Assembly (NCBI GenBank): GCA_902363875.1
Contig: CABJBO010000007.1
Span: forward strand, 32,718 to 96,717
DNA: 64,000 bases
DNA from: Coriobacteriaceae bacterium
GTDB lineage: Bacteria; Actinomycetota; Coriobacteriia; Coriobacteriales; Coriobacteriaceae
Direction: 5' to 3'
Shown: positions 21,097-45,995 of the stretch, piece by piece
How positions within the stretch are numbered: the stretch's first letter is position 1
How the letters are laid out: each line of letters begins with the position of its first letter
Notes under the pieces: generated by a model
Told to the model about the DNA's origin: nothing
What the model saw: the letters and a program-made list of their open reading frames with translations, nothing else
Database searches by the model: none
Position numbers and translations under genes: made by a program

Positions 21097-21243
21097 GTCA
21101 GCGAAAACGACCCAGAGCGAGCAAGGTGACGTGAAAGAGGAGGGCATTGACCTTCTGGTCATGCCCGACGATTGAACGTCAGATTGCCGCTCTGGGTCGT
21201 TTGCAGCGCCGACTAGTTACGCGGTTTGGTAAAACCGCGTAAC
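21097..21243 (-). repeat. Structured 3'-UTR element, family A, copy 1 (after dapH)
   Basis: Read on the minus strand it starts 1 nt after the dapH stop with a palindrome (GTTACGCGGTTT and complement, 21216-21243). It then forms an outer stem AAACGACCCAGAGC with GCTCTGGGTCGTTT, a second stem TGACG with CGTCA, and an apical hairpin GGGCATGACC with GGTCAATGCCC. The core TGACGTTCAATCGTCG and CTCTTTCACGTCACCTTGC is shared with copy 2 (45060-45206), while the outer and apical stems change in both arms together. Confidence 0.75.
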
Positions 21244-21244
21244 C

Positions 21245-21964
21245 CTACAGTTGACGTAAGCCCTCTTCCAGGCCGGTCTTGCTGTCGGTCTGGGCGTCGC
21301 GCATCTTGATGACGCGGGCGGGGACACCGGCCACGACGGCGCCGGCGGGGACGTCCTCGACGCATACGGCGCCGGCGGCAACGACAGCACCCTTGCCCAC
21401 GCGCACGCCCTCCAGGACCACGGCGTTGGCGCCAATCATGACATCATCCTCGATGATGACGGGCGTGGCGCTCGCGGGCTCAACGACGCCTGCCAGCACG
21501 GTACCGGCGCCGATGTGGCAGTTCTTGCCCACGGTGGCGCGGCCGCCCAGCACGGCGCCCATATCGATCATGGAGCCCTCGCCGATAACGGAGCCGATGT
21601 TGATGATGGCGCCCATCATGATGACAGCGCGGTCACCGATCTCGACGCGGTCGCGGATGATCGCGCCCGGCTCAATGCGGGCGTTTATGCCCTTAAGGTC
21701 GAGCATGGGCACGGCGGAGTTGCGGCAGTCGTTCTCCACATCGTAGTAATCGATGGAATCGGCATTGGCATCGAGGATGGCCTTGAGCTCATCCCAGTCG
21801 CCAAAGACGGTCTTGCCACGACGGCCGCCGTAGACGTGCGCATCGCCCCAGGCAACCTTCATGCCGGGCTTCTCGCGCACATACAGCTTGACAGGCGTCT
21901 TTTTAGGCGCGGTGGCGATGTAATTGATAATCTCCTGGGCATCCATCTCGGCTGCGTTGCTCAT
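21245..21964 (-). CDS. dapH: Tetrahydrodipicolinate N-acetyltransferase
   Basis: Transfers an acetyl group from acetyl-CoA to 2,3,4,5-tetrahydrodipicolinate, the first step of the acetylase route to diaminopimelate. 239 aa. The N-terminal 75 residues ([20 protein letters not shown] ...) are the DapH/YkuQ-specific domain; the rest is a left-handed beta-helix of hexapeptide repeats ([40 protein letters not shown]). The N-terminal domain separates it from succinyl-type DapD. Start ATG 21964 behind AGGAGAG. Last gene of the lysine operon; family A copy 1 follows. Confidence 0.9.
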
Positions 21965-25055: not shown

Positions 25056-25123
25056 ACCTCGCTATCCAGACGGCGCCATCTGCGCATCGAATCCGCATAG
25101 CGTGGACCCAATGTCCGGATAGC
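25056..25123 (-). promoter_or_regulatory. Hairpin next to the lysA ribosome site (riboswitch expression platform candidate)
   Basis: Arms 25113-25123 and 25061-25071 pair over 11 bases with one G-U. The 3' arm abuts the GAGG ribosome site of lysA, so this stem could couple ligand binding to translation start. Confidence 0.5.
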
Positions 25124-25135
25124 GCTCCCGCATTG

Positions 25136-25285
25136 CTGCAGACAGTCCTGCGGGTGTTTCCCGCAGGCCCACCAGGTTGTTCGTGCCTGAAAAACCCAGT
25201 TCGGCGGGTTTCGCCTCCCCGCGGGGTCAAAGCCTGCCGGCTCGCCCGCGGCTCTTCGTGCCCGCGCCTCTATCAAGTGGTAACG
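25136..25285 (-). promoter_or_regulatory. Lysine riboswitch (L box)
   Basis: On the minus strand the leader carries the L-box landmarks in order: GATAGAGGCGCG, an AAGAGCCG segment, GGGGAGGCGAAACCCGCCGA, a CTGGGTTTTTCAGG arm, a GGTGGGCCTGCGGG-AAACA-CCCGCAGG arm, and the closing GGACTGTCTGC. It lies about 90 bp before lysA, the expected place. The edges are approximate. Lysine binding would switch off lysA-dapA-dapB-dapH. Confidence 0.85.
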
Positions 25286-39515: not shown

Positions 39516-39559
39516 TTGGGGACGTTCTTACATGACTAGTCGTTTAAGAACGTCCCCAA
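39516..39559. repeat. TTGGGGACGTTCTTA inverted repeat before ecfA
   Basis: Perfect 15-bp arms (39516-39530, 39545-39559) around CATGACTAGTCGTT, 19 bp upstream of the ecfA start. Another GGGGAC-type repeat, resembling REP sequences linked to tyrosine transposases. Confidence 0.6.
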
Positions 39560-39601
39560 GAGCTAGTTGTCTGGGACAGTCTTTGGTGGTGGAGCACGGA
39601 G

Positions 39602-39703
39602 ACGGCTTTGCGAGGGGCCCCAGGTTGGCGCGAAAGAGGAGCGAAGCGTACTTGGGTACGCGAGCGACGAATGAACGCCAAGATGGGGTGGCTCGTAAAG
39701 CCG
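39602..39703 (-). repeat. Structured 3'-UTR element, family A, copy 3 (after the TrpP-like gene)
   Basis: On the minus strand, 6 nt after the S-component stop: outer stem CGGCTTTACGAG with CTCGCAAAGCCG, CCACCCCA with TGGGGCCCC, inner stem TTGGCG with CGCCAA, apical stem GCGTACCC with GTACGC. The core CGTTCATTCGTCGCTCGCGTAC and AAGTACGCTTCGCTCCTCTTTC is nearly the same as copy 2 (45060). The inner stem TGACGT/ACGTCA of copies 1-2 is TTGGCG/CGCCAA here, a compensated change. It lies inside an operon. Confidence 0.75.
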
Positions 39704-43820: not shown

Positions 43821-43918
43821 ACTTACGTTCCCGTTCTGTGACTAACCGAGTATAGTTGTAGGGCAATGCCGATATCCTACCCGTGTTTTTCGGGCCTAAC
43901 CTTATTCGATGGGTTGAT

Positions 43919-45052
43919 ATGTACATTTCCACACATCAGGCTCTGCTCGACTTTTGTCAGCGCGCCCGCGAGTTCGACGCGATTGCCGTCGATACCGAGT
44001 TTTTGCGCGAGCGCACGTTCCACCCGCGCCTGTGCTTGGTTCAGATTGCCACCCCTGCCGAGAGCGTCGCGGTCGATCCTCTGGTGATCGACGACCTATC
44101 GCCGCTGGCCGAGCTTATGGGCGATGAGAGCGTGACCAAGGTATTTCACGCCTGCTCGCAGGATATGGAGGTTATGCTTCATACCGTGGGCGTGCTGCCG
44201 CGTCCCATTTTTGACACGCAGGTGGCCGCCGCCTTTTTGGGCGAGCGCCAGCAGATTTCCTACGGCGCGCTCGTGCAGACGTTTTGCGGTGTCTCATTGC
44301 CCAAGACCGAGTCACTGACCGATTGGTCGCGCCGCCCGCTGACCGACAAACAGATCGAGTACGCGATCGATGACGTCAAGTACCTGATTGTTGCCTATAC
44401 CGAGATGATGAGTCGCCTGCGCGAGCTGGGCCGGGTGGACTGGGTGCTCGACGAGTTGCGTCCGCTGGCCGACGGGTCGCATTATCGCGCCGATCGTCAC
44501 GAGGCATTCCGCAAGGTCAAGCGCATCAACTCGTGCAGCCGCCATCAGCTGGGCATTGCGCGCGAGCTCGCCGCCTGGCGCGAGGACCGCGCCGAGCGCC
44601 GCAACATCCCGCGCAAGTGGGTCATGTCCGACGATACGCTGCTGGCGCTCGTCAAGCGCAATCCCGTGCGCGTCGAGGAGTTCCGCAGCATCCGCGGCAC
44701 CGATCAGCTGGGGGAGCGCGACGTGGACGGCGCGCTCATGGCCATCAAACGCGGCGCGAGCTGCCCGCACGACCGCCTGCCGCTCATGGTGCGCGGGCAT
44801 CGCCAGATTTCGCCGGAGTTGGAGAGCGTGACCGACCTTATGTATGCGCTTATTCGCTTGGTTGCCGAGCGCTCGGGCGTAGCGACCTCGGTCATTGCCT
44901 CGCGCGATGACCTGGCCGACTATATTGAGCATCCCGAGCAGAGTCCCCTGCGCGAAGGCTGGCGCTTTGAGCTTGTGGGCTCGCGCCTGGACGATCTGCT
45001 CTCGGGCAATATGGGGTTGACGGTCAAAGATGGCAAAATTGAATTGCTATAG
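43919..45052 (+). CDS. rnd: Ribonuclease D
   Basis: 3'-5' exonuclease for tRNA and structured RNA ends. 377 aa. DEDDy motifs: AVDTEFLRERT, FHACSQDMEVML, DTQVAAAFLG and the last YAIDDVKYLIVAY. An HRDC-type region follows (REDRAERRNIPRKWVMSDDTLLALV). Start ATG 43919; an upstream in-frame ATG at 43883 lacks a ribosome site. Family A copy 2 begins 7 bp after its stop. Confidence 0.9.
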   Translation: MYISTHQALLDFCQRAREFDAIAVDTEFLRERTFHPRLCLVQIATPAESVAVDPLVIDDLSPLAELMGDESVTKVFHACSQDMEVMLHTVGVLPRPIFDTQVAAAFLGERQQISYGALVQTFCGVSLPKTESLTDWSRRPLTDKQIEYAIDDVKYLIVAYTEMMSRLRELGRVDWVLDELRPLADGSHYRADRHEAFRKVKRINSCSRHQLGIARELAAWREDRAERRNIPRKWVMSDDTLLALVKRNPVRVEEFRSIRGTDQLGERDVDGALMAIKRGASCPHDRLPLMVRGHRQISPELESVTDLMYALIRLVAERSGVATSVIASRDDLADYIEHPEQSPLREGWRFELVGSRLDDLLSGNMGLTVKDGKIELL

Positions 45053-45059
45053 CTATAAA

Positions 45060-45206
45060 GTTACGCGGTTTTACCAAACCGCGTAACAGCTCGACGCTGC
45101 AAACGGCCGAGAGCGGCAATCTGACGTTCAATCGTCGCTCGCGTACCAAAGTACGCGTCGCTTCTCTTTCACGTCACCTTGCTCGCTCTCGGCCGTTTTC
45201 GCTGAC
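45060..45206 (+). repeat. Structured 3'-UTR element, family A, copy 2 (after rnd)
   Basis: Palindrome GTTACGCGGTTT...AAACCGCGTAAC at 45060-45087, then outer stem AAACGGCCGAGAGC with GCTCTCGGCCGTTT, inner stem TGACGT with ACGTCA, and apical stem CGCGTAC-CAAA-GTACGCG. Against copy 1 (21097) the outer stem changes GACCCAG to GGCCGAG with matching changes opposite, and the apical stem is replaced entirely, while the internal-loop words GTTCAATCGTCG and CTCTTTCACGTCACCTTGCTCGCTC stay. Confidence 0.8.
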
Positions 45207-45290
45207 AATGCCTAAACATCGATGCTGACTTGCCTGCTGGGCGAGTGGGTAGAATGCCTCCAACGTGTAACTCGATTCGGAGGAATTCGC

Positions 45291-45995
45291 ATGCCTTATT
45301 ACTATGGATACGGCTTTGGTATCGACCCGCTGTACCTGCTGGTTGTTCTTGTCTGCACGGTGCTTGGCCTTGCCGCGCAGAGCTATATCAATTCGACGTA
45401 CAAGACGTGGTCCAAGGTTCGCTCGGACGGCGACACGGGCGCCAGGGTCGCTCGCCGCATGCTCGACGCGAACGGCTGCAGTGCCGTGGGTATCAAGGGC
45501 GTCGCCGGTGAGCTCACTGACCATTACAACCCGCAGGACAACAACCTGTATCTGTCGGATTCCAACCGTTCGGGCGGTTCGGTCGCAAGCGTTGCTGTCG
45601 CTTGTCACGAGGCAGGCCATGCCGCGCAGCGTCAAAGCGGCTATGCCATGATGAAGGTACGTACCGCCCTCGTGCCGGTCGTCAACTTTACCCAGAACAC
45701 CTGGACCATCGTGCTGCTCATGGGCTTGTTCATGAACATCGCGGGACTCACGACCCTCGCGCTGATCTTCTTCTCGTTTAGCGTGCTGTTCCAGCTCGTT
45801 ACGCTGCCGGTCGAGATTGACGCCAGCCGCCGCGCCGTGGCGTATATCGAGCAGTCGGGCATGAGCTCCAAACAGGTCAACGGTGCCAAGAAGGTGCTGA
45901 CGGCCGCCGCGCTTACCTATGTGGCTGCGGCGCTCACCTCGATTATTCAGCTGCTCTATCTTATGGCTCGCTACAACAGAAACTCCAACCGATAA
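45291..45995 (+). CDS. Membrane zinc metallopeptidase (YugP/DUF1751-like family)
   Basis: 234 aa. An N-terminal helix (LYLLVVLVCTVLGLAAQ), a cytoplasmic-type domain with the zinc motif VACHEAGHAAQ (HExxH), NNLYLSDSNRSGGSV before it, and three further helices. The Gly-Tyr-rich start MPYYYGYGFGIDP and the ordering match the YugP-like Zn peptidase family. Substrate unknown. Start ATG 45291 behind GGAGG. Confidence 0.85.
   Translation: MPYYYGYGFGIDPLYLLVVLVCTVLGLAAQSYINSTYKTWSKVRSDGDTGARVARRMLDANGCSAVGIKGVAGELTDHYNPQDNNLYLSDSNRSGGSVASVAVACHEAGHAAQRQSGYAMMKVRTALVPVVNFTQNTWTIVLLMGLFMNIAGLTTLALIFFSFSVLFQLVTLPVEIDASRRAVAYIEQSGMSSKQVNGAKKVLTAAALTYVAAALTSIIQLLYLMARYNRNSNR

What the first reader, a model, noticed from the sequence alone, without database searches (positions are those of the whole stretch)
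45060..45206. Family A: three structured 3'-UTR elements with covarying stems and one conserved core
Copies lie at 21097-21243 (minus), 45060-45206 (plus) and 39602-39703 (minus). All keep the loop words CGTTCA-A/T-TCGTCG and CTCTTTC-A/G-CG, but the stems change in both arms together: GACCCAG/CTGGGTC becomes GGCCGAG/CTCGGCC; TGACGT/ACGTCA becomes TTGGCG/CGCCAA; the apical stem GGGCATGACC becomes CGCGTAC. Covariation around a fixed core is the mark of a selected RNA or single-stranded DNA fold. I know no named family with this core.
Basis: partly seen in the sequence, partly recalled or inferred. Interest (0 to 1): 0.88.

Follow-up and report, generated by a model that had tools for sequence, protein, structure and literature searches.

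The report
Stop-codon hairpin repeats in Collinsella
Gut bacteria of the genus Collinsella carry dozens of copies of a foldable DNA repeat placed at the ends of genes; its two arms change together, and the evidence points to the DNA strand opposite the gene, not the messenger RNA, as the one whose fold is preserved.

Summary
The two 147-nt copies share one fold: hairpin H1 beside the stop codon, a linker, and a hairpin H2 of about 113 nt. In a 20-copy alignment 30 of 49 pairs show two-sided changes. The third copy is a divergent H2 without H1.

It is a dispersed repeat: 15 elements in 800 kb of one Collinsella genome, matches in 21 of 24 Collinsella genomes, and weaker matches in 22 of 66 sampled genera of the order. 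No Rfam family matches it, and RAYT-REP, tagged-REP and attC definitions were not met.

Sense-RNA selection is not supported. On the gene strand, stem mismatches are more often A·C than G·U, against mutation bias and unlike tRNA stems. The opposite strand folds better in 113 of 113 distinct H2 and in 6 of 6 distant copies. The fixed core is a tandem G·A mismatch on that strand (110 of 113).

38 of 47 sites start -1 to +7 nt from a same-strand stop codon. Modules reassort, presence varies between close genomes, and an IS110-family element lands in H2 (18 of 21 ends).

Best reading: a non-autonomous mosaic DNA repeat, BIME-like in habit and attC-like in geometry, with a strand-specific DNA hairpin. 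The mobilising enzyme is unknown.

The parts
45060..45087 (+). Copy 1, hairpin H1 (12-bp stem), 7 nt after the stop codon of the upstream gene
45088..45092 (+). Copy 1, linker AGCTC
45093..45206 (+). Copy 1, long hairpin H2 (GACGCTGC ... TCGCTGAC); the opposite strand folds better as DNA (-39.8 against -37.1 kcal/mol)
45117..45131 (+). Copy 1, left half of the constant core (CAATCTGACGTTCAA)
45167..45181 (+). Copy 1, right half of the constant core (TTTCACGTCACCTTG); with the left half it gives GA opposite GA on the minus strand
45205..45234 (+). Copy 1, partly conserved tail
43883..45052 (+). Upstream gene of copy 1: DNA_pol_A_exo1 + HRDC (RNase D-like), stop TAG
21216..21243 (-). Copy 2, hairpin H1, 1 nt after the stop codon
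21097..21210 (-). Copy 2, hairpin H2
21245..21964 (-). Upstream gene of copy 2: DapH_N + hexapeptide repeats (dapH-like), stop TAG
39602..39703 (-). Copy 3, divergent H2-like hairpin without H1, 6 nt after the stop codon
39710..40396 (-). Upstream gene of copy 3: match to TrpP just under the Pfam cut-off (26.9 against 27.2 bits)

Best explanation
The element is a non-autonomous, dispersed DNA repeat of Collinsella, with relatives elsewhere in the order, built as a mosaic of modules: H1 at the stop codon, linker, H2, tail. What is preserved is the ability of the strand opposite the upstream gene to fold, as single-stranded DNA, into a long hairpin with constant ends (5'-GTCAGCGA ... GCAGCGTCGA-3') and a tandem G.A mismatch at a fixed height, while the pairs around them drift. 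Shown: fold, covariation, strand asymmetry, stop-codon placement, copy number, presence/absence differences, module reassortment, use as an IS110-family target. Inferred: that the hairpin is the substrate of a single-strand-acting recombinase or transposase, not identified here, which reads shape and ends, as integron integrase does with attC. An additional effect on translation termination or mRNA 3' ends is possible and untested.
For: Covariation: 30 of 49 pairs. Wrong mismatch type for sense RNA: stem a A.C 28 against G.T 9 over 66 distinct stems, 21 against 8 as distinct local events; stem b 7 against 1; 19 tRNA acceptor stems 0 against 8. Mutation bias runs the other way: coding-strand singletons 36 of the A.C-making type against 72 of the G.T-making type; 21 of 29 gives p 2.7e-5 against that background, p 0.024 against one half. 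Minus strand more stable in 113 of 113 distinct H2 with RNA and 111 of 113 with DNA parameters, the other 2 tied, in all 3 window copies as DNA and in 6 of 6 copies from another family (null hairpins 51%). GA/GA on the minus strand in 110 of 113. Placement: 38 of 47 sites at -1 to +7 nt from a same-strand stop, random positions 2.65% within 10 nt. Mobility: site A filled in 4 and without the element in 9 of 13 close genomes; 179 of 375 orthologous pairs have H2 under 85% identical. IS110-family ends: 18 of 21 in H2.
Against: No enzyme found: 0 of 30 fetched Y1-transposase loci has a match better than E 0.37, and reverse transcriptases do not follow copy number. No clean insertion footprint: filled and empty sites differ over the whole intergenic block. 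H1 (5:5) and the inner helix (3 A.C against 5 G.T) do not show the A.C excess. Events are not phylogenetically independent. The minus-strand advantage could also reflect an antisense RNA. Part of the mosaic pattern could come from ordinary recombination between repeats.
Confidence: 0.52

Rival explanations
1. Sense-strand RNA element: a 3'-UTR structure that protects mRNA ends, stops transcription or slows the ribosome at the stop codon, kept by selection on the RNA.
For: 38 of 47 sites lie directly behind a same-strand stop codon; strong RNA fold and covariation. REP effects on mRNA and translation are known (recalled).
Against: A.C mismatches exceed G.U, against mutation bias; the sense strand is the weaker folder; no T-run after H1 in any and after H2 in 9 of 158 copies; the element is absent at site A in 9 of 13 close genomes.
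Confidence: 0.13
2. No dedicated enzyme: an old repeat kept and mixed by homologous recombination and by hairpin-templated repair, which also keeps the arms complementary.
For: Module mixing between sites; the mismatched chimera in G007 and the H2 deletion in G004; whole intergenic blocks replaced.
Against: H2 at least 97% identical at different sites has H1 as different as any pair, 0.82 against 0.80, though H1 lies 5 nt away; constant ends in distant copies; arm correction alone predicts no A.C excess and no strand preference.
Confidence: 0.18
3. A REP in the strict sense, moved by a RAYT (REP-associated Y1 transposase).
For: Y1 genes in 22 of 24 genomes, many with RAYT-like lengths; copy number and intergenic habit; an IS110-family element targets it, as others target REPs (PMC1525189, passages read).
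Against: None of 30 fetched Y1 loci carries the element; several Y1 genes are flanked by palindromes of other families (by eye); genomes without matches (G015, G021) also have Y1 genes.
Confidence: 0.1
4. An antisense RNA made from the minus strand.
For: Minus-strand wobble pairs and G.A tandem.
Against: Conservation fades about 27 nt beyond H2, so no conserved minus-strand promoter is seen; at site A the next gene runs in the same direction as the element; only 15 of 47 sites have an opposite-strand frame ending within 90 nt.
Confidence: 0.05

Closest known systems
REP / BIME mosaic repeats
   Same: Tens of copies, intergenic, palindromic modules in mosaic order, target of IS110-family elements (PMC1525189 and PMC2817692, passages read)
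   Different: H2 is about 113 nt against 20-40 bp for REPs (PMC3733652, passages read), constant orientation at stop codons, no flanked RAYT, G.A tandem on one strand
GTAG- and CGTC-tagged REPs (PMC3733652, passages read)
   Same: Read on the minus strand, the linker carries CGTC before H1
   Different: CGTC is 5 nt or so from the stem, H1 has 12 pairs not 8-9, and no CCA tail; GTAG is not constant before H1
Integron attC sites (PMC2727003, abstract and outline seen)
   Same: Strand-specific fold of the bottom strand, variable stems with few fixed marks; position directly after the stop codon in gene orientation is recalled for attC
   Different: No RYYYAAC...GTTRRRY pair in 158 copies; scattered over the chromosome at single gene ends; no integrase searched for
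ERIC, NEMIS and similar long-hairpin repeats (recalled)
   Same: Length, intergenic habit, long imperfect hairpin
   Different: Not compared by sequence; constant ends, H1 module and strand preference as described here
Collinsella-1 RNA (RF01700; PMC2864571, passages read)
   Same: Genus
   Different: Rfam scan of the window reports only a lysine riboswitch at gathering score, nothing at E<=5 for copy 1

Membership tests
REP with RAYT | RAYT gene flanked by the repeat | tested here: not met
   30 Y1 loci of 50 listed matches fetched; no R1 match better than E 0.37
REP / BIME (by habit) | Tens of dispersed intergenic palindromic copies in mosaic arrangement | tested here: met
   15 elements in 800 kb; module reassortment over 47 sites
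CGTC-tagged REP | CGTC directly before an 8-9 bp stem, CCA tail | tested here: not met
   Sequence of linker and H1 in 20 copies against the description in PMC3733652
GTAG-tagged REP | GTAG at the foot of the palindrome | tested here: not met
   Bases before H1 vary; TAG is enriched as a stop codon, TAA also occurs
attC site | RYYYAAC / GTTRRRY end boxes (consensus recalled) | tested here: not met
   0 of 158 copies
attC site | Bottom-strand hairpin distinguishable from the top strand by unpaired bases | tested here: met
   Energy and mismatch asymmetry
attC site | Integron integrase in the genome | not tested
Rfam family | Match to a curated covariance model | tested here: not met
Intrinsic terminator | G+C-rich hairpin followed by a T-run | tested here: not met
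   TTTT after H1 in 0 and after H2 in 9 of 158 copies; no terminator-like site in window 44900-45400
Sense-strand structured RNA | G.U tolerated, A.C avoided in stems | tested here: not met
   Stem a 9 G.T against 28 A.C; tRNA control 8 against 0

The most novel reading that the evidence does not exclude
A new class of strand-specific single-stranded DNA recombination substrate in this order of bacteria: a bottom-strand hairpin with constant ends and a tandem G.A mark, free in its other pairs, placed at stop codons and exchanged as a unit by an undescribed shape-reading recombinase; in effect an attC-like system scattered over the chromosome without an integron.
Probability: 0.2. Interest if true: 0.87.

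Novelty: new variant of a known kind. Interest (0 to 1): 0.6.

Why it matters
Covarying stems are often taken as proof of a selected RNA. Here the type of mismatch and the energies of the two strands assign the fold to the strand opposite the gene, which offers a cheap test for other candidate structured RNAs. If a dedicated enzyme exists, it would be a shape-reading DNA recombinase in a common gut genus. The repeat also shuffles the 3' ends of many ordinary genes and is the landing site of an insertion sequence of a kind known to be RNA-guided.

Tried and rejected
Led nowhere or rejected: Rfam; phage records (no match); plasmid records (one Collinsella aerofaciens record of 899,693 bp, 13 places); viral contigs (0 stretches for the exact pattern); RAYT as partner; reverse transcriptase as carrier (6 of 24 genomes, three with many and three with few or one match); attC boxes and terminators; TAG as a fixed tag of H1 (site stops TAG 31, TAA 9, TGA 0; 455 genes of the same DNA 47.5%, 44.4%, 8.1%; enriched, not required); GC skew as a guide to replication direction (uninformative). 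Counts repeated with more copies: stem-a mismatches were A.C 26, G.T 5 over 46 stems, then 28 and 9 over 66, where 6 stem pairs cut short by the pattern were dropped. In one search the pattern gave 23 hits in G024, of which 8 were judged false by eye; it gave 31 hits in four genomes, of which the 6 that also match R1 with E<=4.4e-15 were kept, and 2 weaker R1 places (L438, L437) were not examined. The tRNA control chose, for each tRNA, the offset with most pairs, G.T counting half, which mildly favours G.T. Literature on a described repeat of this group: 0 papers; 20 of 534 listed; 12 of 433 listed; 2 papers, openings of abstracts seen; nothing fitting was seen, but the library is open-access only and the lists are partial.

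Full report
What is there. Copy 1 (45060-45206, +) and copy 2 (21097-21243, -) have the same plan: a 12-bp hairpin H1, a 5-nt linker, and a long hairpin H2 that begins GACGCTGC (GGCGCTGC in copy 2) and ends TCGCTGAC. Copy 3 (39602-39703, -) is an H2-like hairpin without H1. The three start 7, 1 and 6 nt behind a stop codon on the same strand. The upstream genes are RNase D-like, dapH-like and, just under the Pfam cut-off, TrpP-like.

How large the family is. The window's assembly is not held; the nearest genome held, G001, has 28 BLAST places. Genus names come from records: G007 contig C6 has the length of Collinsella aerofaciens NZ_OY725717.1, and G011 C1 that of Collinsella sp. 4_8_47FAA NZ_KN214134.1. 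A model from 20 copies (R1) matches in 21 of 24 genomes of the genus and in 0 of 15 other genomes of a first search; 13 genomes give 32-52 matches, G008 20, seven 1-9, and three none. These are matches, not elements: both strands of one copy can match, as, and only 80 candidates per genome were scored. A contiguous 800 kb of G024 holds 15 elements, plus a lone H1 and a few weak places. A wider search gave 45 of 120 genomes and 22 of 66 genera, with 26 candidates scored per genome: 18 genomes of the genus, 4 of other genera in its family, 18 of a second family, and 5 with weaker matches (E about 2e-7 to 4e-7) in two more.

Which strand folds. In RNA helices G.U is tolerated and A.C is not; 19 tRNA acceptor stems from the same DNA show 8 and 0. 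In stem a of 66 distinct stems A.C is three times as frequent as G.T (28 against 9, other mismatches 16, Watson-Crick 871; as distinct local events 21, 8 and 13). Stem b shows 7 against 1; H1 (5:5) and the inner helix (3:5) show no such excess. Singletons at third codon positions of five neighbouring genes show that mutation favours the changes that would make G.T (72 against 36), so the excess runs against mutation bias: p 2.7e-5 against that background, p 0.024 against one half. The events share ancestry, so these p-values are guides only. A.C on one strand is G.T on the other. The minus strand is the more stable in 113 of 113 distinct H2 with RNA parameters and 111 of 113 with DNA parameters, two being equal, in the three window copies as DNA and in the six distant copies with both parameter sets; imperfect random hairpins give 51%. 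One reason is the core: where the plus strand has TC opposite TC, the minus strand has GA opposite GA, kept in 110 of 113. By eye, the distant copies also show purine mismatches, in several GA/GA, between stem a and the next helix. That 5'-TGAA steps suit sheared G.A pairs in DNA is recalled, not tested.

Where it sits. 158 copies in the DNA at hand fall into 47 sites; sites 6 and 41 are one gene end with a doubled H1. 40 sites have a same-strand frame ending within 60 nt, 38 of them at -1 to +7 nt, two at 50; seven have none. Random positions give 12.7% within 60 and 2.65% within 10 nt. In the G024 stretch 13 of 15 elements lie this way. An inverted copy lies between two genes in G004, G010, G019 and G024.

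How it changes. Site A is filled in G009, G012, G014 and G018 and lacks the element in nine other close genomes. At site B 12 of 13 close genomes have H2, but stems, apical loops, H1 and tails differ; G007 has arms of two types that do not match, and G004 lost most of H2. Of 375 orthologous pairs 179 have H2 under 85% identical. Of 940 pairs at different sites of one genome, 88 have H2 at least 97% identical; their H1 are as different as those of any pair (0.82 against 0.80) and their tails slightly closer (0.69 against 0.64). I read this as H2, with part of the tail, being the unit that spreads. At three further sites filled and empty alleles differ over the whole intergenic block, and 12 of 13 genomes keep a partial, partly decayed H1 at a glmS-like gene (by eye; gene name recalled).

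Who uses it. An IS110-family element (Transposase_20 and DEDD_Tnp_IS110) has 21 exact left ends in 12 of 24 genomes. 17 by pattern and one more by eye (L370) sit at TTCGCT^ in the 3' foot of H2; three (L373, L380, L381) do not. Where the right junction was seen it continues CTG(A/T)C, which suggests a CT core. IS110-type elements that target REP and attC hairpins are known (PMC11187229 and PMC1525189, passages read).

What was not found. No flanking transposase among 30 Y1 loci; flanking palindromes of several of those genes belong to other families. No link with reverse transcriptases; IS110-type genes occur in 16 of 24 genomes. No clean insertion footprint. Tyrosine recombinases and integron integrases were not searched.

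Verdict. It is best described as a BIME-like mosaic DNA repeat whose preserved fold lies on the strand opposite the gene, with attC-like geometry. I saw no description of it, whose lists are partial. The step from a folded strand to a recombinase substrate is inference.

Noticed in passing
L148, L093, L184, L215, L221, L231, L365-L385: An IS110-family insertion sequence, about 1.7 kb in L148, with ends CATATGACCCAATCC ... GGATTGGGTCATA, inserts at one base of H2 (TTCGCT^) in 18 of 21 ends.
   Followed up: partly
L063, L069, L070, L071, L079, L083, L088; window 39530-39600: Another group of palindromic repeats with TTGGGGAC / GGGACAG cores, in several cases on both sides of RAYT-like genes; a copy follows copy 3 in the window.
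   Followed up: partly
window 25112-25280 (-): Lysine riboswitch, 79.7 bits, upstream of genes on the strand that carries the dapH-like gene.
   Followed up: no
L122 (G007), orthologue of copy 2: H2 with a left arm of one type and a right arm of another that do not match: a recombinant caught in the act.
   Followed up: partly
L386-L398, glmS-like 3' end: Twelve of 13 genomes keep only a partial H1-like piece before the terminator, while G001 has a whole element: a scar of loss or an older half-site.
   Followed up: partly
L412-L424 (site 28): One intergenic region in three states: sense element after the stop (G001, G006, G018), inverted element (G004, G010, G019, G024), and neither (six genomes).
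   Followed up: partly
G024 C1 1-800000 (L137-L176): Stop codons of 455 long genes: TAG 47.5%, TAA 44.4%, TGA 8.1%, an unusual TAG share for a G+C-rich genome (the comparison is recalled).
   Followed up: no
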